Below, piece after piece: positions 10,149 through 22,471 of a DNA stretch of 64,000 nt. The position numbers and the translations under genes are program-made. Under the pieces are notes generated by a model. It was not told the origin of the DNA and ran no database searches. It worked only from the letters and a program-made list of their open reading frames with translations. The stretch covers positions 540,147-604,146 of the forward strand of contig NZ_JACHNU010000002.1 in NCBI RefSeq assembly GCF_014199525.1. Direction: 5' to 3'. Numbering within the stretch: position 1 is the stretch's first letter; every line of letters begins with the position of its first letter. This DNA is from Conexibacter arvalis (GTDB taxonomy: Bacteria; Actinomycetota; Thermoleophilia; Solirubrobacterales; Solirubrobacteraceae).

Positions 10149-11381
10149 TTATGTCGCCTCGGAAGACCCCGGTCCGGAGGCCGGCGCGCCGGGCTCCTGC
10201 GGCGCCGGCTCCGACGCGCTCGCATCGGCGGCGCCCGGGTACGACGGTCTCGCGGCCGGGTCGAGCAGGCGCTCGTAGAGGCGGTAGCGGCGCACGACTC
10301 TGCCGCCCATCCCCTCCATCGCGCGGTTCATCGACTTGTTCGTCTCGAGGATCCAGCCCATCTCGCCGTATGTCTGCGGCGTGACCTCGGCCGAGTCGAA
10401 GTGGAGCTGGTAGAAGCGGGCGGCGACGCCGGTGTGCTGCCACTCGCGCTTGACGCCGAGCGCGAAGACGCGGACGCGGTCGATCTTCCCGCGGTTGCGC
10501 AGGAACTTCAGCCAGCCGAACGGCAGGATGCGCCCGTTCATCGTCTTGAAGACCTGGTTGTAGTCGGGGACGCTGAGCGCCGCGCCGACCGTCTCGCCGT
10601 CCTTCTCGGCGACGAACGCCCAGTGCTCGTCGAGGATCGGCTTGAGCGTCTGGGCGTAGTGGCGGACCTCGGTCTCGGTCAGCGGCGAGAAACCCCAGTT
10701 TCTCTCCCACGCCTCGTTGTAGACCTCGAGGAAGCGGTCGATCTCGGCGTTGATGTCCTTCTTGCGCATCGGCCGCACGGTGATCCCGTACTTGCTCTCG
10801 ACGCGCTCGGCGACTCTCCAGATCGACGGGTGGACCCTGTCGCGCCCCTGGATCTCCAGGTGCCACATCAGCGTGTCCATCGCTCTGATCATCCCCGCGC
10901 CCTCGAACAGCCCCGGGTAGTAGCGATGGGTCCAGTCGGTGAGGATGATCGGGGCCAGCTCGTGGCCCTCGACGAGCACGCCGTTCTCGTCGTTCATCGT
11001 GAAGCTCATCGGCCCGACCATGCGGTCGCGGCCGCGCTCGCGCAGCCACTGCTCCGCGGCGGCGAAGAGGGCGTCGGCGGCCTCCTGGTCGTCCTCGCAC
11101 TCGAAGAAGCCGAACAGGCCCCATCTGTTGTCCTGGAACTCGTTGAGGAGCCGGTCGATCTGCGCGGTGATGCGCCCGACGGCGCGCCCGTCGCGCCACG
11201 CGAGGAAGTACTCGGCCTCGCCGTGCTCGAACCACGGGTTCTTGTCGCGGTCGAGGAATCTGCGCCGGTCGGAGATGAGCGGCGGGACCCAGTTCGGCTC
11301 GTTACGATAGAGCCGCCACGGCAGCTTGATGAAGGTTGTGAGGTCGCGCCTGGAAGCGACCGGCCGGACTTCGAGACCCAT
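10149..11381 (-). CDS. GNAT-fold N-acyltransferase, YghO/bacterial ceramide-synthase-like
   Basis: This is a 410-residue cytosolic protein of the large GNAT-like group typified by E. coli YghO. Characteristic stretches are RLYRNEPNWVPPLISDRR near the start, NPWFEHGEAEYFLAWRDG, FGFFECEDDQEAADAL, and the NDENG segment near residue 140. Related proteins have been implicated in N-acylation of sphingoid bases (bacterial ceramide synthase); that link is from general knowledge and needs a search. The ATG at 11381 has AGGGTGG upstream. An alternative GTG at 11390 would leave only 5 bases to the divergent serine-palmitoyltransferase-like gene. Several Arg codons are AGA. Confidence 0.7.
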   Translation of the reverse strand: MGLEVRPVASRRDLTTFIKLPWRLYRNEPNWVPPLISDRRRFLDRDKNPWFEHGEAEYFLAWRDGRAVGRITAQIDRLLNEFQDNRWGLFGFFECEDDQEAADALFAAAEQWLRERGRDRMVGPMSFTMNDENGVLVEGHELAPIILTDWTHRYYPGLFEGAGMIRAMDTLMWHLEIQGRDRVHPSIWRVAERVESKYGITVRPMRKKDINAEIDRFLEVYNEAWERNWGFSPLTETEVRHYAQTLKPILDEHWAFVAEKDGETVGAALSVPDYNQVFKTMNGRILPFGWLKFLRNRGKIDRVRVFALGVKREWQHTGVAARFYQLHFDSAEVTPQTYGEMGWILETNKSMNRAMEGMGGRVVRRYRLYERLLDPAARPSYPGAADASASEPAPQEPGAPASGPGSSEAT

Positions 11382-11395
11382 GCCGGCCACCCTAT

Positions 11396-12664
11396 ATGCC
11401 GACCACCACAGACGTATTCGACAAGGCCCGCACGCATGAGCGCGTCCTGCAGCTGAGAGCGGCCCGCGAGATCGACGCGGTTCCGTATTTCCGCCGGCTC
11501 GAGTCGCCCGCCGCCCCCGTCGTCGAGATGGAGGGCGGGCGCCGCATCATGCTCGGCTCCAACAACTACCTCGGGCTGACCGGCGACCAGCGGGTGATCG
11601 ACGCCGCGCACGAGGCGATCGACCGCTACGGGACCGGCGTCACCGGCTCGCGGCTGCTGAACGGGACGCTCGACCTCCACCTCGAGCTGGAACGCGAGCT
11701 GGCCGAGTGGTTCGGGACCGAGGACGCGCTCGTCTACACGACCGGCCACCAGGCCAATCTCGGCGCGATCGGCACGATCCTTGGCCCCGGCGACACGGTC
11801 ATCGTCGACTCGGGCGACCACGCCTCGATCCTCGACGGCGTGCTGCTGTCGAGGGCGAAGATGCGGGCCTTCCGCCACAACCGGCTCGACCTGCTGGAGA
11901 AGCGCCTGCAGCAGGCCGAGCAGGACGGCGGCGGGATCCTCGTCGTCGTCGACGGCGTCTTCTCGATGGAGGGCGACGTCGCGCCGCTGCCGCAGATCGC
12001 CGACCTCGCCGAGCGCTACGGCGCACGGCTGATGGTCGACGAGGCGCACGGCCTCGGCGTGCTCGGCGCCCGCGGCGCCGGCGCCTCCGAGCTGCTCGAC
12101 GTCGAGGAGCGGGTCGACCTGCGGATGGCGACCTTCTCGAAGTCGCTCGCGTCGTGCGGCGGCGTGATCGCCGGCCCCGCCGACGTGATCGACTTCCTGC
12201 GGATCCAGTCGCGCCCGTTCCTCTTCACCGCCTCGGGCGTCCCGGCCGCGGTCGGCTCGGCGCTGGCGGCGGTGCGGATCTGCCGCTCGGAGGAGGGCAG
12301 AGCGCTGCTCGCGCGGATGCAGGAGAACGCCGCCTACCTCAACGCGGGCCTGCGCTCGCTCGGGCTGCACGTCGTCGATCCGGTCGCGCTGCCGGACGGG
12401 TCGAGAGTGGCGACGCCGATCGTCCCGGTGCTGGTCGCCGACGACTGGAAGGCGGCGCTGCTGTGGAAGGCGCTCTACGAGCACGGCGTCTACGTCAACG
12501 TCGCGCTCCATCCCGCGGTCCCGCCCGGCGGTGCGCTGCTGCGCACGAGCGTGATGGCGACGCACGACACGGCGACGCTCGACGAGGCGATCGCCGCCTT
12601 CGCCGCCGTCAAGCGCGACTTCGAAGCCGAGCACGGCCCGCTGCCGAGCCCGGTCGACGGCTGA
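11396..12664 (+). CDS. alpha-oxoamine synthase, serine palmitoyltransferase-like
   Basis: This is a 422-residue pyridoxal-phosphate enzyme that condenses an amino acid with an acyl-CoA. The PLP lysine is Lys249 in TFSKS, and DEAHGLGVLG supplies the cofactor Asp and His. The family includes KBL, BioF and serine palmitoyltransferase. Here GSRLLNGT, AFRHNRLDLLEKRL and PFLFTASG resemble the bacterial serine palmitoyltransferase sequence I remember more than KBL or BioF. A divergent GNAT acyltransferase supports a sphingolipid role. No BioF partner genes are nearby. The ATG at 11396 has no ribosome-binding site, so the start is uncertain. Confidence 0.75.
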   Translation: MPTTTDVFDKARTHERVLQLRAAREIDAVPYFRRLESPAAPVVEMEGGRRIMLGSNNYLGLTGDQRVIDAAHEAIDRYGTGVTGSRLLNGTLDLHLELERELAEWFGTEDALVYTTGHQANLGAIGTILGPGDTVIVDSGDHASILDGVLLSRAKMRAFRHNRLDLLEKRLQQAEQDGGGILVVVDGVFSMEGDVAPLPQIADLAERYGARLMVDEAHGLGVLGARGAGASELLDVEERVDLRMATFSKSLASCGGVIAGPADVIDFLRIQSRPFLFTASGVPAAVGSALAAVRICRSEEGRALLARMQENAAYLNAGLRSLGLHVVDPVALPDGSRVATPIVPVLVADDWKAALLWKALYEHGVYVNVALHPAVPPGGALLRTSVMATHDTATLDEAIAAFAAVKRDFEAEHGPLPSPVDG

Positions 12665-12687: not shown

Positions 12688-12865
12688 TCGCGACCGCCCG
12701 CTCTCCCCCGTTCGGCAGCGCGCCGACGCGCCGATGGTCTCGAATCGGGAGTGGATCGGCGCACGGCGCGACGACGCTCTGGTATGGGCTGGCACGCCCA
12801 CGGTTCCCGCTTTTCAGGTCGTTCACAAAAACCCCGCTCCTAGCGCACGTTGGGCCAGTTCTCCA

Positions 12866-12895
12866 TTGACCGGCCCGGGGCGAACCGCATACGGT
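12866..12895 (+). promoter_or_regulatory. sigma-70-type promoter for the mIHF-like gene
   Basis: TTGACC (12866-12871) and TACGGT (12890-12895) are separated by 18 bases, close to the housekeeping consensus and the best two-box promoter in the window. The nearest start codon of the mIHF-like gene is about 175 bases downstream, giving a long 5' leader. The rest of the 12688-13075 interval contains no gene I can support. Confidence 0.55.
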
Positions 12896-13075
12896 CTGAG
12901 GCGTCGTCCGGTGGGGTCCGCACAACGGCCGCCGCGCCCTTACGAGGGAGGGAGCGAGTGCCAAGGATCGTGCTCGAGCCCGCTCGGCCGACGGAGTCGA
13001 CAGCGGTCCGATCCCCTCAAGCTCGGACTGCCGTCGCGGGCCTACTCGTATCGGAGGCAGGGAGAAAGAGTGCAG

Positions 13076-13450
13076 ATGGACGGGTTGCCGACGATGACCC
13101 CTGGGCCGCAGCATCTGCGGGCCCTGGAGCGTGCCAACCGCGTGCGGCTTGCGCGCGCCGAGCTGAAGCGGCGCATCGCCGACGGAGAGGTATCCGCAGC
13201 GGAGGTCCTCCTCTCCGCCCCGTGGGAAGCCAGCAGCATGGCGATCGGGGACGTGCTGATGAGTCAGCGTCGCTGGGGCAGCACCCGCTGCCGGAAGTTC
13301 CTCGCGATGTTCCGAATCTCGGAGACCAAGAGCGTCGGCTCGCTCACCGAGCGTCAGCGCCTCGCGCTGGCCGCTCAGCTGGACGCGCACGCCAAGATCG
13401 AACGCGGCAGCGTTCGACTCGAGGCGACGCGCGAACTGGTCAGCGCCTGA
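13076..13450 (+). CDS. mihF: mIHF-like integration host factor
   Basis: This is a 124-residue DNA-binding protein matching the actinobacterial mIHF family. It has an N-terminal basic helix (ERANRVRLARAELKRRIADG), a middle segment corresponding to the helix-two-turn-helix (SMAIGDVLMSQRRWGSTRC), and the closing SVGSLTERQRLALAAQL. mIHF bends DNA and is a major nucleoid protein in mycobacteria and Streptomyces. The ATG at 13076 or a GTG at 13070 could start it; the purine-rich GGGAGAAAGAG just upstream fits either. Longer in-frame extensions upstream have no family similarity. It has its own promoter and a strong hairpin terminator, so it is monocistronic. Confidence 0.82.
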   Translation: MDGLPTMTPGPQHLRALERANRVRLARAELKRRIADGEVSAAEVLLSAPWEASSMAIGDVLMSQRRWGSTRCRKFLAMFRISETKSVGSLTERQRLALAAQLDAHAKIERGSVRLEATRELVSA

Positions 13451-16117: not shown

Positions 16118-16779
16118 GTCCGGCTTCTCACCAGCTCCCGGACCTTGGCCGCCAGCCTCGCCGGCGTCGCCACCTGGTCGCCGAGCGCTGTCTCCAACAC
16201 CTCTCCGCCTCTGTGGGCGAGCACGACCGTCGGGCAGATCGCGACCGCGTAGAGGTTGGCGACGGCGCCGTCGCGGTCCTGCGCCAGCGGGAAGCTCCAG
16301 CCATGCTCGCGCGCGAGCTTGCGGAACTCGTCGCGGTCGCCCTTGATCCCGACCGCGGCGAAGCCGACCTGCGGGAAGCGGGCGGCGACCTCCTCCATCG
16401 CGTCGAGCTCGCGGACGCACTTGCCGGCGCCGGCGGTCAGGAAGGCGAGCACGACCGGCCCTCGCTCCTGCAGCGTGCAGATGTTCAGCGCCCGCGGATC
16501 GGTCACCTCGCACGCCGGCGTGTTGCCGGCCTCGCCCTGGTTCGCTCTGCGGGCGACGTTGGCGTCGCCCTCGAGGTCGCTCGCGACCAGCGGCGCGGCG
16601 AACGGCAGCAGCTGCTCGCCGGCCTGCAGCCCGGTCGAGCCGGGTCCCTCCGTCCGCAGCGTGTTGAGCGAGATGTAGGCGACGACGATCAGCGCGACGA
16701 CGCCGACCATCCAGCCGTACCTGCCCGACGACGGCCGCGCGGACGGCGGCGGGCCCGGGCGCTGCTCGGCTCCCGTCAT
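16114..16779 (-). CDS. membrane-anchored thioredoxin-fold (TlpA/AhpC-like) protein lacking the first active-site Cys
   Basis: This is a 221-residue protein with a Pro-rich cytoplasmic start, one membrane helix (about residues 24-42) and an extracytoplasmic thioredoxin fold. The strand VVLAFLTAG is followed by AGKC where redox-active TlpA/ResA proteins have CxxC, so only the second Cys is present. The cis-Pro region (ICPTVVLAHRGG) is intact. Two further cysteines lie before the fold (TPACEV and NICTL). It overlaps the MMPL gene stop (ATGA), so it belongs to the lipid-transport operon. It may act through a non-standard Cys pair or as a non-redox binding domain. Confidence 0.75.
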   Translation of the reverse strand: MTGAEQRPGPPPSARPSSGRYGWMVGVVALIVVAYISLNTLRTEGPGSTGLQAGEQLLPFAAPLVASDLEGDANVARRANQGEAGNTPACEVTDPRALNICTLQERGPVVLAFLTAGAGKCVRELDAMEEVAARFPQVGFAAVGIKGDRDEFRKLAREHGWSFPLAQDRDGAVANLYAVAICPTVVLAHRGGEVLETALGDQVATPARLAAKVRELVRSRT

Positions 16780-19484
16780 GCGACCGGGGCGTCGGCCCCG
16801 TCCGGCGCCGCGCGACCGCCGCGGCCGCGCGGGCGCGGGAGCCGCGTGGCGAGGCGGGCGAAGACGCCCCGCTCGGCCAGCACGAGCACCGACGGCAGCA
16901 CGATCAGCACGCCGATCAGCGAGACGGCGAGGTCGACGACGGTGACGATCCCGAAGTCGCGCAGCATGCGGATGTCTGAGAGGGCGAGCACGCCGAAGCC
17001 GGCGATCGCGGTCACGCCCGAGGCGACGACGGCGCGGCCGGTCGAGCGGTAGGTGCGGGCGAGCGCCTCCGGCGTCGCGTGGCCGGCGGCGCGCTCCTGG
17101 CGGAAGCGCTCCGACAGCAGCACGCTGAACTCGGTCGAGATCGCGATCACGAGCGCGCCGAGCGTCGCCGACATCGGGTTGAGCGGCACGCCGGTCAGGA
17201 ACAGCACGAGCGCCGACCAGCCGGTCGCGAGCGCGATCGGCAGCAGCGGCACGAGCGCCCGCTCGGCGCGCCGGAAGACGGCCAGCAGCACCGCGGCGAC
17301 GGCGAGCAGGCCGAGCACGACGGTCAGCAGCCGGCGCTCCGGCGAGGAGAGCTCGGCGTTCGCCTGCGCGGTCACGACCGGCAGCCCGGCGAGCTGCGCC
17401 TCGACGCCCTTCGGCGGGTCGAGCTCCGCGCGCATCGCCTCGACGACGCGCTGCTGCTCGTCGAGCGGCATCAGTCTGATGCCGAAGGCGAGCGTCGCCG
17501 CCTCGCGGTCGGGCCGCAGGACGGCCGAGGCGAAATACGCGGGGACGGCGTCGAGCAGCGTGTCGATCTGCTCCTGCGTCCCGGTTCTGCCGCCGGCGAA
17601 CAGATCCGGCAGCGACAGCGCCGGGCAGATTCTCGCCTGCGCGCAGCCCTTGCGCTCGTCGTAGCCGAGCCGTCTCAGCACCCGCTGCTGGTAGTCGCCC
17701 ATCCACGCGACGACCTGCGGCGTCGCGACGTCGTCGCCGCGCACGACGACGTCGATCTCGCCCGAGGAGTTGGTCGCCTCCTGCAGCGCGGTCAGGTCGG
17801 CGAGCGCCGGCAGCTCGGCGGGCACGAGCTTCGTCAGGTCGGAGACGACCTCCTTCTGCGTCTCCGCCGCCCAGCCGAGCGCCGCCAGCGCGAGCGCCGC
17901 CGCCAGCACGCGGCCGGGCCGGCGCAGCGACGCGCCGAGGATCGCCCGCGGCGAGGCGATCCGGCCGACCGCCCGGCCGACCGCGCGCAGCGGGGGCACT
18001 GCGGCGAGCGCGCGTCCCGCGCCGGCGAGCAGCTCGCGCGCCCCGGCCGCGGAGGCGCGCAGCGCGCCGGCGAGGGCCGCGAGGGCGCGGAAGCTGCGAT
18101 GACCGCCTCGCCGCCCGGCGAGCGCGCGCGCAGCCGAGCCGGCGGTCAGCGTGACGGCGAAGGCGAGCGCGACGCCGATCACGAGCAGCAGTCCGAAGCC
18201 GCGCACCATCGGCACCGGCGACAGCAGCAGCACGAGGAAGCCGGTCGCGGTCGCGAGCGCAGCCGTCGCGATCGTCGGCGCGCCGACCCGCGCGGCGCGC
18301 ACGACCGCCTCAGCTCCGTCCGCGCCGGCGGCCGCCTCCTCCTCGATCCGCGACTGGAACTGGATCGCGTAGTCGACGGCGAGGCCGATCAGCACCGGCA
18401 GCACGGCGATCGACGCCATCGTCAGCTCGACGCCGGCGAGCCGCATCAGGCCGAAGGTCAGGCCGGCCGCCGCCAGCGCGATCGCGAGCGGCAGCAGCCG
18501 CAGGCGACCGCGGAAGACGAGCAGCAGCACGAGCGCCATCGCGACGACCGCGCCGCCGAGCAGCAGCGCGATCTCGCCGGTCAGCGTCCCGGCCAGCGCC
18601 TCGACGACGACCGGCACGCCGGAGACGGTGTAGGTGCCGCCGTGGCCGAGTCTGAACATCGGCATCGCGACGGCCTCGCGCACCAGCTCGATCGCGCGCC
18701 GCCGCTCGGAGGCCGAGAGGTCGGGGCGCAGTCTGACCTGGATCAGCGCGGCGTCGCGGCTCGGGAAGAGGAAGGCGAAGCGCGATTTCGGCACGTCGGC
18801 GCCGCGGGCGGCGTCGAAGACGATCTGCGAGACGAAGCCGGGGTCGTCGAGCTGCGGCGCGGCGCGCAGGCCGTTCATCGCCGCCAGTCTCTGGAGGTAG
18901 CTCCACGACTGGCTTTCGGAGGCTCTCGCCGCGCGCTCGCCGGCCGCGCGCTGCGCCGCTCGGTCGAGCCCCTGCCGCCGCGCCGCTCTCACCGCTTCGG
19001 CGCGTGCCTTCTCGGAGCGCGCGGCGGCCGCGTCGAGCTCGTCGAGGATCACCTGCTGGAGCGCGGTGGCCGCCTCGTTGAGGAAGGTTCCGGGGCCGTA
19101 GACGACCCGTACGGGCTTCAGCTCGGCCAGCTCGGCGCAGGGGCTGCTCGCGCCGCCGTACGGTCTTGCGCCCGAGGGCACGTTGCCGCCGAGGCAGCCC
19201 TCGAGCCGGATGACGGTGCGCAGGTCCTCGGTCAGCACGAGGTCAGCGACCCGCTCTCTGACGAGGACCATGATCGCGTCGTCGCCGAAGTCGCGGTGGA
19301 AGTCGGCGGTCGCGCGGCCGGCGTCGGAGGAGCGGCTGGCGAACGAGTCGGCGCTCGTGCTCGCCTGCAGTCCGAGCGCGAGCGCACCGCCGCCGAGCGC
19401 GAGTGCGACCACGGCGATCAGGGTGACGACGGGCCGGCCGGCGGCGGCCCGTGCGATGCGCTCGAAGCCTCCTCGCAACGGCAC
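16776..19484 (-). CDS. MMPL/RND-family lipid transporter
   Basis: This is a 902-residue inner-membrane transporter of the RND superfamily, MMPL branch (hopanoid transporter HpnN is a relative). It has a first membrane helix, a large extracytoplasmic loop (about residues 40-290), a block of five to six helices (about 300-460), a second large loop and a second helix block near the C-terminus. Helix segments such as AVLPVLIGLAVDYAIQFQSR and the repeat ALVIAISTEFSVLLSERFR carry the proton-relay Asp/Glu positions of the family. It sits 82 bases after the last Mce gene, so it probably moves a lipid in the same system. The start is GTG at 19484. Confidence 0.9.
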   Translation of the reverse strand: MPLRGGFERIARAAAGRPVVTLIAVVALALGGGALALGLQASTSADSFASRSSDAGRATADFHRDFGDDAIMVLVRERVADLVLTEDLRTVIRLEGCLGGNVPSGARPYGGASSPCAELAELKPVRVVYGPGTFLNEAATALQQVILDELDAAAARSEKARAEAVRAARRQGLDRAAQRAAGERAARASESQSWSYLQRLAAMNGLRAAPQLDDPGFVSQIVFDAARGADVPKSRFAFLFPSRDAALIQVRLRPDLSASERRRAIELVREAVAMPMFRLGHGGTYTVSGVPVVVEALAGTLTGEIALLLGGAVVAMALVLLLVFRGRLRLLPLAIALAAAGLTFGLMRLAGVELTMASIAVLPVLIGLAVDYAIQFQSRIEEEAAAGADGAEAVVRAARVGAPTIATAALATATGFLVLLLSPVPMVRGFGLLLVIGVALAFAVTLTAGSAARALAGRRGGHRSFRALAALAGALRASAAGARELLAGAGRALAAVPPLRAVGRAVGRIASPRAILGASLRRPGRVLAAALALAALGWAAETQKEVVSDLTKLVPAELPALADLTALQEATNSSGEIDVVVRGDDVATPQVVAWMGDYQQRVLRRLGYDERKGCAQARICPALSLPDLFAGGRTGTQEQIDTLLDAVPAYFASAVLRPDREAATLAFGIRLMPLDEQQRVVEAMRAELDPPKGVEAQLAGLPVVTAQANAELSSPERRLLTVVLGLLAVAAVLLAVFRRAERALVPLLPIALATGWSALVLFLTGVPLNPMSATLGALVIAISTEFSVLLSERFRQERAAGHATPEALARTYRSTGRAVVASGVTAIAGFGVLALSDIRMLRDFGIVTVVDLAVSLIGVLIVLPSVLVLAERGVFARLATRLPRPRGRGGRAAPDGADAPVA

Positions 19485-19566: not shown

Positions 19567-21120
19567 TCATCTGCCCGACGCGGGCGGCTCCGCGATCACG
19601 TGCGGGAAGTCGCCGCTTCTGAAGCCCGGGAAGCTGCCCTGCGCGCGGCAGGCGGTGGCCGGGACGTTTCGGTAGTCGCCGACGGTGAATCTGCCGCTCG
19701 CGTCTCTGTCGAAGCGGAACGCGATCATTCTGATGAACTCGATCGCGCTGGAGCTGATGCCGCCGATGATGTTCGGGAGGTCCTCGGGCAGGTTCGGGAT
19801 CGGCCGCAGCCCGGTTGCGCACTGGCGCTGCTCGAAGGTCGTCTGGCCCTGGCGGCGGGCCGTCGGGCCGCTCGTTCCCGGTGCGCGGTAGGCGTTCGGC
19901 CGGTTGTACGCGAGCCGGTTCGGATAGGTCGCCAGCGACTCCGGCGTCGCGCCCGCGAGGCCGCGCATCCAGCCGACCCCGCCGATTGGACCGCCGATGC
20001 CCGGCGCACCATTGGTCGCGGCGGCGAAGTTGCCGAAGAAGGCGTCGATCTCCGGCAGGTAGTCGCCGATGAACGCCAGCACCGGGTTGAAGGTGCGGGT
20101 GAACGGGCCGAGCTGGGCGAGCGCCGGCCGCAGGTCGTCGAGGAATCTCGAGAAGGCCGGCAGACCTCTGTAGGAGGCGGTGATCAGCGGACCGAGGTCG
20201 ACGAAGAAGTCGCGGAAGGGCGGGGCCAGCCGCGACAGCGACTGCAGCGTCGGGCTCAGCTCGCGCGCGACCGGCCGCATCTGCGTGACGAGCGGATCGG
20301 TGTCGCGGGCGAATCTGTCGAGCCGCTCGACCGTCGCCTTCGACTCCATCTCGAAGGTCGGCAGCACGCGGAAGATCTCCTGGAGCGACTCGTTGCGCTC
20401 CGCGAGCGTGCCGAAGACGGCGTTCGAGTTGCGGATCAGCCCGGTCAGCTGGTCCTGGCGCTCGCTCAGCGCGCCGAAGACGTCGCCGGTGTTTCTGAAC
20501 AGCGCCCGGACCGCCGGAGCCTGGCGGTTGGCGATCTCGACGAGGTCGTTCGTCTCGCTCGCGAACGGCGCGAGGTTGCCGAGCGCGTCGTTGAACGCCT
20601 GCCCCCGTCCTCTCAGGCCGGCCGCCTGCGCCTGCATCCAGACCTGGAAGGCGTGGCGGGTGGGCTCGTCGAGCGAGCGGAAGATCTCGTCGAGTTCGAC
20701 CGTTCTCTGCACCTGGCCGGTCGGCAGTTTCCCGCCCTCCGGCAGCAGCCCGCCGCGCTTGTCGCCGGGGGTCAGCTCGACGTAGGTCTCGCCGAGCAGC
20801 GTCTTCTGGCGCAGGATCGCGCGCGTGTCCTTCGGGATCGGCGCGTAGCGCTCGTTGAGCTCGATCGTCGCGTCGGTCGTCTCGCCGGGGCCGAGCTCGA
20901 GCTTGACGACCTTGCCGACCGGCACGCCGGAGATGCGCACGTCGGCCTGCTGCGCGAGCTGGGTCGCCTCGGGGAAGTACGCGTGGAACTGGTAGCCCTT
21001 CGGCTTCAGCGGCACCGCGCCGCCGAACGAGATCCACAGATAGAGAAGCAGCCCGAAGCACGACAGGGCGAAGCCCGCCATGACGAGGATGCGGCCGAGT
21101 GTCGGAGCTTGCTTCTGCAT
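19567..21120 (-). CDS. Mce-family lipid-transfer protein, sixth in operon
   Basis: This is a 517-residue protein with one N-terminal membrane helix (about residues 10-32) and an MlaD domain (about 40-115, containing VRISGVPVGKVVKLELG). A long helical region to about residue 340 would form the needle or barrel of a Mce hexamer. The C-terminal part is Pro/Asn-rich with two widely spaced Cys. It corresponds in position to MceF. It starts one base after the preceding mce stop, so translation is coupled. No lipobox is seen. Several arginines are AGA, for example in LDRF. Confidence 0.9.
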   Translation of the reverse strand: MQKQAPTLGRILVMAGFALSCFGLLLYLWISFGGAVPLKPKGYQFHAYFPEATQLAQQADVRISGVPVGKVVKLELGPGETTDATIELNERYAPIPKDTRAILRQKTLLGETYVELTPGDKRGGLLPEGGKLPTGQVQRTVELDEIFRSLDEPTRHAFQVWMQAQAAGLRGRGQAFNDALGNLAPFASETNDLVEIANRQAPAVRALFRNTGDVFGALSERQDQLTGLIRNSNAVFGTLAERNESLQEIFRVLPTFEMESKATVERLDRFARDTDPLVTQMRPVARELSPTLQSLSRLAPPFRDFFVDLGPLITASYRGLPAFSRFLDDLRPALAQLGPFTRTFNPVLAFIGDYLPEIDAFFGNFAAATNGAPGIGGPIGGVGWMRGLAGATPESLATYPNRLAYNRPNAYRAPGTSGPTARRQGQTTFEQRQCATGLRPIPNLPEDLPNIIGGISSSAIEFIRMIAFRFDRDASGRFTVGDYRNVPATACRAQGSFPGFRSGDFPHVIAEPPASGR

Positions 21121-21121
21121 C

Positions 21122-22471
21122 TCAGGGTATCTCCGGCGGCTTGGGGCACATCGTCGAGTTGTCCGGGAAGTTCGACAGCTGCGCGGCCAGCGTCAGCGCG
21201 GCGGCCTCGGGGATGTCGCCGCCCTTGACGCCCGCGACGGCGACGCCGGCGCTGCACGTGACGTAGAGGTTCGCGCGCAGCATCGCGCCCATCGCGTCCT
21301 GGGTCGAAGTCGCGGAGTTCGCGAGGTGGCCGAGCCACGTCAGGTAGAAGAGATAGCTCTCGGTCGTCCCGCTGTTCGGCCGGTAGGCGAGCGCGTTGAA
21401 GAATCTGTTGAAGATCGCGAAGCCGGTCGTCAGCTGCGGCGTCGCGGCCGCGAGCTGCCGCGCCGCCGGGCGGAGCGTCGTGATGACCGGCGTCGCCTCC
21501 CGCGTGAACGGGCGGATCTGGTCGCGGACGATCGGCGTCGTCTCCGTCAGGAACGGGCGGGTCGCTCTCAGCGCGGGGCCGAGGTTGCGGGCGAACGGCC
21601 GCAGCGCCTCGAGTGCCGGGCCCGCCTCGCCGGCGAACTCGCCGGCCGCCTCCAGCGCGCTCTTCGTCTGCTGGAGCGTGCCGGGCAGCGCGGCGAGCGT
21701 CTGCTCGATGTTCGCGCCCTGGTCGGCGAAGCGGCGCAGCGCCGCCTGCGATGCGTCGACGAACCGCGTCAGCTCGCGGTTGTTTCTGCCGAGCGCCTGC
21801 GTGAACTTGCCGAAGTTCGTGATCGCGCGTCTGATGTGTCTGCGGCGCTCGATCAGCAGCTCCGACGCCCGCTTCCCGTCTCGGGCGAGCGGGTCGAACA
21901 TGCGGAACGCCTGCGCCAGCTCCTCGCCGTTGCCCTCGAGGCCGATCGCGGCGCCGTTCAGCAGCAGCTGCAGGTAGGCGCGCGTGTCGCGGTCGAGGAC
22001 GGCGAGCAGCTCGTCGAGGTTGACGTCGGGCAGCGTCTGCGAGACCGGGATCGTGTAGCCCTCCTCGACCGGTCCGCGGCCGTCCTCCCTCGAGCCGGGG
22101 TCGAGCTCGACGACCATGTCCTTGAGGCCGGTCTTCGGCCGCAGGAGCATCGTCGCGTTCGGGTAGATCTCCTTGTATCTGTCGCTGATCCGCATCGTGA
22201 CGAGCGCGCGGCCGTTCGCCAGCTCGACGTTGGAGATCTCGCCGACCTGGACGCCGGCGATGTCGACGGTCTGCCCCTGGCCCGGCGTGATCGCCTGCGC
22301 GGTCTCGAACTCGCCCTTGATGACGAAGTCGTCTCTGCCGACGATCGGCACCCAGCCAGGGAAGTAGATCCGCTGGTGGGCGAGGATGTAGCCGCCGACT
22401 ATCGCCGCGACGACGACGAGCGCCAGGATCGCGATGAAGTCGCGCAGGTGCTTCCGGATCGCCAGCTTCAT
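21122..22471 (-). CDS. Mce-family lipid-transfer protein, fifth in operon
   Basis: This is a 449-residue protein: N-terminal membrane helix (about residues 12-32), MlaD domain (about 45-125, with VDIAGVQVGEISNVELANG), then helical segments to about residue 370 and a C-terminal piece with two Cys. In mycobacterial operons the fifth protein is often a lipoprotein; here the helix LALVVVAAIVGGYILAHQ has no lipobox, so it is a membrane-anchored type. The start overlaps the upstream stop (ATGA). It should form part of a hetero-oligomeric lipid tunnel outside the membrane. Confidence 0.9.
   Translation of the reverse strand: MKLAIRKHLRDFIAILALVVVAAIVGGYILAHQRIYFPGWVPIVGRDDFVIKGEFETAQAITPGQGQTVDIAGVQVGEISNVELANGRALVTMRISDRYKEIYPNATMLLRPKTGLKDMVVELDPGSREDGRGPVEEGYTIPVSQTLPDVNLDELLAVLDRDTRAYLQLLLNGAAIGLEGNGEELAQAFRMFDPLARDGKRASELLIERRRHIRRAITNFGKFTQALGRNNRELTRFVDASQAALRRFADQGANIEQTLAALPGTLQQTKSALEAAGEFAGEAGPALEALRPFARNLGPALRATRPFLTETTPIVRDQIRPFTREATPVITTLRPAARQLAAATPQLTTGFAIFNRFFNALAYRPNSGTTESYLFYLTWLGHLANSATSTQDAMGAMLRANLYVTCSAGVAVAGVKGGDIPEAAALTLAAQLSNFPDNSTMCPKPPEIP

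What the first reader, a model, noticed from the sequence alone, without database searches (positions are those of the whole stretch)
10149..12664. Divergent serine-palmitoyltransferase-like and GNAT acyltransferase genes: possible actinobacterial sphingolipid synthesis
The oxoamine synthase resembles bacterial serine palmitoyltransferase more than KBL or BioF (GSRLLNGT, AFRHNRLD, PFLFTASG), and the divergent gene belongs to the YghO-like GNAT group that I recall being linked to ceramide formation. Together they could make a sphingoid base and acylate it. Sphingolipid synthesis is rarely described in actinobacteria.
Basis: partly seen in the sequence, partly recalled or inferred. Interest (0 to 1): 0.65.

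Follow-up and report, generated by a model that had tools for sequence, protein, structure and literature searches.

The report
Order-wide actinobacterial sphingolipid gene pair
Nearly all sampled actinobacteria of the order Solirubrobacterales carry two genes, usually back to back, that look like the first two enzymes for making ceramide-type sphingolipids, while the usual third enzyme could not be identified with confidence and no lipid has been measured.

Summary
Window 11396-12664 (+) encodes an alpha-oxoamine synthase (AOS); window 10149-11381/11390 (-) encodes a YghO-like tandem-GNAT protein, divergent from it. In maximum-likelihood trees the AOS groups with serine palmitoyltransferases (SPT; support 100/99.9). 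Grouping it with KBL, TIGR01825 or the genome's own BioF is rejected (p-AU 7e-5, 3e-7, 4e-9). The own BioF lies between bioB and bioD. One congener has a further AOS beside tdh that groups with KBL. The GNAT is 33% identical to E. coli YghO, listed in print with Caulobacter's ceramide N-acyltransferase. Both genes occur in 59 of 61 sampled genomes of the order, adjacent and divergent in 55 of those 59. In a 197-genome phylum sample all 12 genomes with an SPT-like AOS also have the GNAT. Rubrobacter, one Streptomyces and one Nonomuraea have the pair plus a CerR-like gene. The third step is open here: no CerR-like gene beside the pair, and the genome's best candidate lacks the cluster CerRs' Trp and is only weakly separable from CerR (p-AU 0.03 to 0.37). 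Best reading: SPT plus bacterial ceramide synthase. No lipid data tested this.

The parts
11396..12664 (+). alpha-oxoamine synthase of the serine palmitoyltransferase clade (422 aa), with PLP-lysine motif ATFSKS and GSRLLNGT
10149..11390 (-). YghO/bCerS-family tandem-GNAT protein, probable N-acyltransferase (413 aa from GTG 11390; 410 aa if it starts at ATG 11381)
   Evidence: start codon
11389..11394 (-). TAGGGT, -10-like element 7 nt upstream of the probable GNAT start (leaderless-type promoter, inferred)
16779..19484 (-). MMPL-family transporter, with a relative in 39 of 80 related loci; possible lipid exporter (inferred, not shown to belong to the system)
19570..22471 (-). two Mce/MlaD-domain proteins in the same neighbourhood; association with the pair only by position in the window

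Best explanation
The two genes are the first two enzymes of a bacterial-type ceramide pathway. The AOS, a PLP enzyme of the SPT clade, condenses L-serine with a fatty acyl thioester to give 3-ketosphinganine. The tandem-GNAT protein, of the bacterial ceramide synthase (bCerS/YghO) family, N-acylates the sphingoid base. A reductase encoded elsewhere in the genome (a divergent CerR-like extended SDR, or another SDR) makes the dihydro form, or the ketone is kept. Shown here: family placement of both proteins, their linkage across sampled Solirubrobacterales, and their association with CerR-like genes in other actinobacteria. Inferred: substrates, reaction order, product, reductase and lipid export.
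For: AOS: best PDB matches are SPTs (317 bits, against 247 for the best KBL). The best NCBIfam scores are two SPT models (403 and 389 bits, against 357 for the best glycine C-acetyltransferase model and 334 for bioF). The set of 10 Solirubrobacterales, 3 f20 (Rubrobacter family), 2 f48, one Streptomyces and 8 SPT rows is one side of a branch at 100/99.9 in trees of 34 and 42 rows. In the 34-row tree, holding the Solirubrobacterales rows with KBL, TIGR01825 or own BioF+G085 is rejected: p-AU 7.4e-5, 3.5e-7, 4.0e-9. Residues named in the S. multivorum SPT structure paper (Asn52, Tyr54, Gly80-Ser81, Asn85, His138, Ser185, Thr241, Ser243, Lys244; passages of PMC10196870) are kept (numbers run one below the paper's); KBL rows differ at Gly80-Ser81, Asn85 and Ser243. 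GNAT: 33% identity over 374 residues to E. coli YghO, aligned end to end with homologues within about 10 kb of AOS/SPT genes in eight other records. A passage of PMC9386255 lists yghO with CC_1154. Linkage: both genes in 59 of 61 sampled genomes, adjacent and divergent in 55 of 59, median gap between hits 24 bp. Phylum sample: 12 of 12 genomes with an SPT-like AOS have the GNAT, which 16 of 197 have at 300 bits or more. AOS-GNAT-CerR-like triads: Rubrobacter radiotolerans and two more f20 genomes, Streptomyces NBC_01001, Nonomuraea.
Against: The AOS passes no curated NCBIfam SPT cut-off (403 of 640; 389 of 500). Some paper-named residues are not kept: Met271 is Leu, Phe83 is Leu, Ala79 is Thr. 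No CerR-like gene is beside the pair: among 80 loci with up to 8 kb on each side (41 of them over 12 kb long) only one weak SDR was seen. The genome's best CerR-profile hit (156 bits) lacks the Trp of 7 of 7 cluster CerRs. The GNAT family also occurs without a detected SPT-like AOS: 4 of 16 genomes at 300 bits or more, 15 of 27 at E<=1e-30. The phylum association rests on about three lineages, so its Fisher p (3.6e-16) is overstated; the AOS profile contains those lineages, and at most 9 candidates a genome were scored. The trees hold no HemA, CqsA, SulA or eukaryotic SPT rows. Passages on polar lipids of Solirubrobacter and Conexibacter woesei name no sphingolipid.
Confidence: 0.6

Rival explanations
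1. SPT-like in fold but not in substrate: the AOS condenses another amino acid (alanine, glycine or other) with an acyl thioester and the GNAT N-acylates the aminoketone, giving a 1-deoxy or otherwise non-sphingoid N-acyl aminoketone lipid.
For: No clear CerR in the locus or genome; SPT is reported to use Ala and Gly at much lower efficiency (abstract start of PMC10196870); other amino acids are suggested for Spt-like enzymes (passage of PMC11334938).
Against: Most serine-contact positions are the SPT ones; the AOS groups with SPTs at 100/99.9; homologues in Rubrobacter keep a CerR-like gene; a CerR-like role for the own-genome SDR is not excluded.
Confidence: 0.2
2. The AOS is a glycine C-acetyltransferase (KBL) or BioF paralogue of primary metabolism and the GNAT is an unrelated neighbour.
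For: Glycine C-acetyltransferase and bioF models also score highly (357 and 334 bits), as expected within the superfamily.
Against: Trees and AU tests. A separate BioF lies between genes that pass the bioB and bioD cut-offs. tdh passes its cut-off in 1 of 21 relatives, and there an extra AOS beside it groups with KBL. The GNAT is adjacent in 55 of 59 genomes.
Confidence: 0.04
3. The pair makes a small-molecule N-acyl amide (signal or secondary metabolite) rather than a membrane lipid.
For: A Streptomyces plasmid triad is followed by a condensation-domain gene; some AOS enzymes make signals (CqsA matches at 100 bits).
Against: Presence in 59 of 61 sampled genomes with conserved surroundings that include an MMPL gene suits a core lipid better than a strain-specific metabolite (inference).
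Confidence: 0.1

Closest known systems
Caulobacter/rhodobacterial ceramide pathway (Spt, bCerS = CC_1154/YghO, CerR = CC_1164, AcpR, AasR)
   Same: SPT-clade synthase plus YghO-family N-acyltransferase in one locus
   Different: Two of the five genes at the locus; divergent with a gap of a few bases; no gene beside the pair matched the CerR profile in the search; no acyl carrier protein or acyl-AMP ligase gene noticed beside it (not searched for)
Rubrobacter radiotolerans plasmid triad (L042: AOS, GNAT, NAD(P)-dependent oxidoreductase)
   Same: Same phylum; homologous AOS (about 42%) and GNAT (40%)
   Different: Co-directional, with a CerR-like third gene that has the Trp
Bacteroides-type pathway (SPT, classical-SDR ketosphinganine reductase BT_0972)
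   Same: A precedent for SPT with an unclustered reductase of another SDR type (passages of PMC9278070)
   Different: Whether the window genome has a BT_0972-type reductase was not tested

Membership tests
Bacterial serine palmitoyltransferase | Phylogenetic placement with characterised SPTs, outside KBL and BioF | tested here: met
   Branch support 100/99.9 in two trees, with PDB 3a2b and 2x8u as characterised rows; AU tests
Bacterial serine palmitoyltransferase | SPT-characteristic PLP motif GTFSKS and serine-contact residues | tested here: met
   ATFSKS in the window and two of nine relatives, GTFSKS in the other seven; GSRxxNGT in 10 of 10 rows (motif named in a passage of PMC10196870). 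Met271, Phe83 and Ala79 are not kept
Bacterial serine palmitoyltransferase | Curated NCBIfam SPT model over cut-off | tested here: not met
   402.8 of 640, 388.8 of 500 and 307.6 of 670 bits; by their names the models are for Bacteroidota and Proteobacteria
Bacterial serine palmitoyltransferase | Condensation of L-serine with palmitoyl thioester | not testable with these tools
   needs enzyme assay
Bacterial ceramide synthase (bCerS/YghO) | Full-length homology to YghO/CC_1154-type proteins from spt clusters | tested here: met
   33% to E. coli YghO; 16-row alignment with 21 invariant columns. CC_1154 itself was not fetched
Bacterial ceramide synthase (bCerS/YghO) | GNAT-type fold | tested here: met
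   Model with mean pLDDT 68.8; best PDB matches are tandem GNATs (2wpw, 7q3a; E 4e-13 to 3e-12, TM by query length 0.44-0.48)
Bacterial ceramide synthase (bCerS/YghO) | N-acylation of a sphingoid base | not testable with these tools
   needs enzyme assay
Caulobacter-type ceramide pathway | CerR reductase encoded in the genome | tested here: inconclusive
   Best candidate (156 bits, next 87) lacks the Trp; its 12-row clade held with CerR gives p-AU 0.028, the wider 18-row clade 0.37
Caulobacter-type ceramide pathway | Dedicated AcpR and AasR genes | not tested
   No dedicated search was made in the genome
KBL (glycine C-acetyltransferase) | Falls in the KBL clade; over the TIGR01822 cut-off; tdh partner | tested here: not met
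   299.8 of 493 bits; p-AU 7.4e-5; tdh over cut-off in 1 of 21 genomes, not this one
BioF | Falls with BioF; over the TIGR00858 cut-off; bio-cluster context | tested here: not met
   334 of 426 bits; p-AU 4.0e-9 with own BioF+G085; own BioF is another gene between bioB and bioD

The most novel reading that the evidence does not exclude
Ceramide-type lipids are a core, order-wide membrane component of Solirubrobacterales, made by a two-gene SPT-bCerS unit without a canonical CerR, so that the lipid is either reduced by an unrecognised reductase or kept as an N-acyl-3-keto-sphingoid, a membrane lipid class not known to accumulate in wild-type bacteria (the last clause is recalled, not searched).
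Probability: 0.25. Interest if true: 0.72.

Novelty: new member of a known kind. Interest (0 to 1): 0.5.

Why it matters
Sphingolipids have been described mainly in Gram-negative bacteria with an outer membrane (recalled; PMC11087976 passage). An order-wide SPT-bCerS pair in actinobacteria would extend the pathway to a Gram-positive soil group, raise the question of what ceramides do there without an outer membrane, and point to an unidentified reductase or a keto-ceramide end product. Cultured strains listed with the GNAT (Conexibacter, Patulibacter) make it directly testable.

Tried and rejected
Rejected: KBL and BioF (see rivals). Left open: the own-genome extended SDR at G000:C4:255420-256403 as reductase. 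It is the best CerR-profile hit (156 bits, next 87), lacks the Trp, lies beside MATE-like and RNase BN-like ORFs (by eye), and groups at 83% identity with SDRs of other Solirubrobacterales. Of 22 best SDR ORFs from 19 relatives 21 lack the Trp; the exception (L156, G029) has it but scores 289 bits to HpnA, so the Trp is not unique to CerR.

Two of my own tests were unfair and are not used. The one search test (p-AU 5e-47) held the own SDR with CerR while its 83%-identical relatives were counted among the others. The KBL test (p-AU 3.5e-37) counted two KBL-clade rows among the others. replace them. I lowered the novel-case odds (0.30 to 0.25) and the other-substrate rival (0.22 to 0.20) because absence of CerR is now inconclusive.

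Dropped rows: L049:22308-23213 from the CerR alignment, as it did not align as an SDR of this kind; Nonomuraea's AOS from the tree, as its frame is broken into two overlapping pieces; L142 and L145 from the SDR tree.

Not resolved: eukaryotic or Bacteroides-type classical KDSR was not searched (no reference sequence at hand). Stankeviciute et al. 2022 is not in the library, so which Gram-positive groups it lists was not seen. Paper searches joining Thermoleophilia, Actinobacteria/Actinomycetes/Actinobacteriota, Conexibacter/Solirubrobacter/Patulibacter or Rubrobacter with sphingolipid terms (listings of 1, 7, 8, 15, 15 of 135, 3, and 10 of 662) showed no title or abstract start on sphingolipid synthesis in Solirubrobacterales; absence from print is not claimed beyond these listings.

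Full report
Observation. The window lies in a 5.2-Mb, 18-contig genome (G000:C2:540147-604146). By this gene pair its named relatives are Conexibacter, Patulibacter and other Solirubrobacterales (records very near the window may be left out there). The closest listed GNAT, 88% identical, is from Conexibacter sp. CPCC 205762; that the unnamed 'same order' genomes are Solirubrobacterales is inferred from this. Window 11396-12664 (+) encodes a 422-aa PLP enzyme of the alpha-oxoamine synthase family, and 10149-11390 (-) a GNAT-like protein. The GNAT probably starts at ATG 11381. A TANNNT element 6-8 nt before an in-frame start occurs in 50 of 86 distinct upstream regions, against 78 of 4300 shuffles, which suggests a leaderless transcript.

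AOS identity. PDB sequence search ranks SPTs first (Sphingobacterium 317 bits, Sphingomonas 269-275), KBL next (247 and below), and BioF lower. NCBIfam ranks two SPT models first (403 and 389 bits), then glycine C-acetyltransferase (357 by NF005394, 300 by TIGR01822) and BioF (334); no curated SPT cut-off is passed. In a 34-row tree, and again with 8 further actinobacterial AOS (42 rows), the 10 Solirubrobacterales rows, 3 f20 rows, 2 f48 rows, Streptomyces NBC_01001 and 8 SPT rows (two of them solved structures) are one side of a branch at 100/99.9. Holding the Solirubrobacterales rows with KBL (4 rows), TIGR01825 (3) or own BioF+G085 (2) is rejected in the 34-row tree at p-AU 7.4e-5, 3.5e-7 and 4.0e-9. 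Order inside the SPT set is poorly resolved. The PLP motif is ATFSKS in the window and two of nine relatives, GTFSKS in the other seven. Most active-site letters agree with SPT; Met271, Phe83 and Ala79 of the paper are not kept.

Primary-metabolism alternatives. The genome's only other AOS at E<=0.001 (39% identity) lies between genes that pass the bioB (342 of 225) and bioD (142 of 83) cut-offs. tdh passes its curated cut-off in 1 of 21 genomes (G003). There a further AOS ends about 50 bp from tdh and groups with E. coli KBL, while G003 also has the window-type AOS at 90% identity.

GNAT identity. It has no PDB sequence match up to E 10 and no NCBIfam match up to 0.1; Pfam gives weak GNAT hits. 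It is 33% identical over 374 residues to E. coli K-12 YghO and aligns throughout with homologues lying within about 10 kb of AOS/SPT genes in Sphingomonas, Roseomonas, Klebsiella, Diaphorobacter, Aureispira, Rubrobacter, Streptomyces and Nonomuraea. Passages of PMC9386255 and PMC11324152 name yghO ECD_02850 and CC_1154 as the proposed N-acyltransferase of ceramide synthesis. E. coli BL21 carries spt, an acyl carrier protein gene, an epimerase/dehydratase gene, a fatty acyl-AMP ligase gene and yghO together. The predicted model (mean pLDDT 68.8, 7 sequences) matches tandem GNATs.

Linkage. GNAT: 59 of 61 genomes, own included. AOS orthologue (63% identity or more): 59 of 61; the tool's tally of 60 counts G028, whose only match is 41% and BioF-like. 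The two genomes lacking both, G021 and G028, are 64% and 75% complete. The pair is adjacent and divergent in 55 of 59 (gap between hits 0-282 bp, median 24); exceptions are G025, G030, G041 and G047. Among 80 named loci, parts of the surroundings recur: a CoxE-like VWA protein (31 loci), an AlkA-like protein (46), a small protein at 12734-13447 (58), a glyoxalase-family protein (26), MMPL (39); flank lengths differ, so these are lower bounds. In a phylum sample of 197 genomes the GNAT family occurs in 27 at E<=1e-30, and in 0 of the 13 same-class genomes of other orders. SPT-like AOS (567 bits or more; next value 444) occurs in 12, all with the GNAT, while 4 of the 16 genomes with GNAT at 300 bits or more lack it. 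These 12 represent about three lineages (6 of the own order, 3 f20, 3 f48).

Third step. A profile from five cluster CerR-like proteins (A2) finds, in 80 loci with up to 8 kb on each side (41 over 12 kb long), only one weak SDR (L098, 44 bits). In this genome one extended SDR stands out (156 bits, next 87; all 119 candidates scored). It lacks the Trp present in 7 of 7 cluster CerRs. Its curated-model scores are generic (HpnA 103 of 368), but so are those of the three cluster CerRs scanned (95-114). Nine cluster CerRs form one side of a branch (74/97). Holding the own SDR's 12-row clade with them gives p-AU 0.028; holding the wider 18-row clade gives 0.37. A CerR-like role is therefore neither shown nor excluded. 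In f20, inferred to be the Rubrobacter family because G111 gives the same scores as R. radiotolerans L042, three genomes have the CerR-like gene directly after the GNAT, while two f20 genomes of the sample (G071, G249) had no GNAT match. Streptomyces NBC_01001 and Nonomuraea also have it there. Bacteroides shows that an unclustered classical SDR can do the reduction (passages of PMC9278070); this type was not searched here.

Lipid evidence. Solirubrobacter deserti is reported with iso-C16:0 2-OH above 10% of fatty acids and an unidentified aminophospholipid (passages of PMC10722151). Two-hydroxy acids are often amide-linked in bacterial sphingolipids, but they also occur in ordinary actinobacterial lipids (both recalled), so this is only a hint. 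Conexibacter woesei is reported with phosphatidylinositol as main polar lipid (passage of PMC3035278).

Verdict. The pair is very probably SPT-type plus bCerS-type. That it makes sphingolipids is likely but unproven; the reductase is unidentified. [quoted passage not shown] What this analysis adds is the near-universal, mostly divergent pair in sampled Solirubrobacterales and the lack of a clear CerR beside it.

Noticed in passing
L042:10716-14083 and L042:14239-16308: Rubrobacter radiotolerans plasmid 1 carries AOS-GNAT-CerR-like followed by an LTA-synthase-family gene, a possible head-group enzyme for a ceramide (inferred).
   Followed up: partly
L047:8340-15211: Nonomuraea gerenzanensis: AOS (reading frame broken into two overlapping pieces), GNAT divergent from it, CerR-like gene, a membrane protein that looks PAP2-like and an MMPL-like transporter (both by eye), echoing MMPL near the window pair.
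   Followed up: partly
window 11340-11430 and L013-L041: Conserved TANNNT element 6-8 nt upstream of the GNAT start (50 of 86 upstream regions), suggesting leaderless transcription; the AOS promoter must overlap it or lie inside the GNAT gene (inferred).
   Followed up: partly
L074, L082, L088: Three public MAG records titled Bifidobacterium breve carry the Solirubrobacterales-type GNAT at 60-64% identity; the titles look wrong.
   Followed up: no
window 12734-13447: Small protein with a relative in 58 of 80 loci, no Pfam match; resembles actinobacterial integration host factor by eye (recalled).
   Followed up: no
L210, L211, L212, L214: YghO-family GNATs at 300 bits or more in actinobacterial genomes without a detected SPT-like AOS (G116, G094, G085, G207): the family may have other roles.
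   Followed up: partly
L146-L151: A clade of high-scoring extended SDRs (176-191 bits to the CerR profile) in six relatives that lacks the CerR Trp; grouping it with CerR is not rejected (p-AU 0.13). Could be tested as an alternative reductase.
   Followed up: partly
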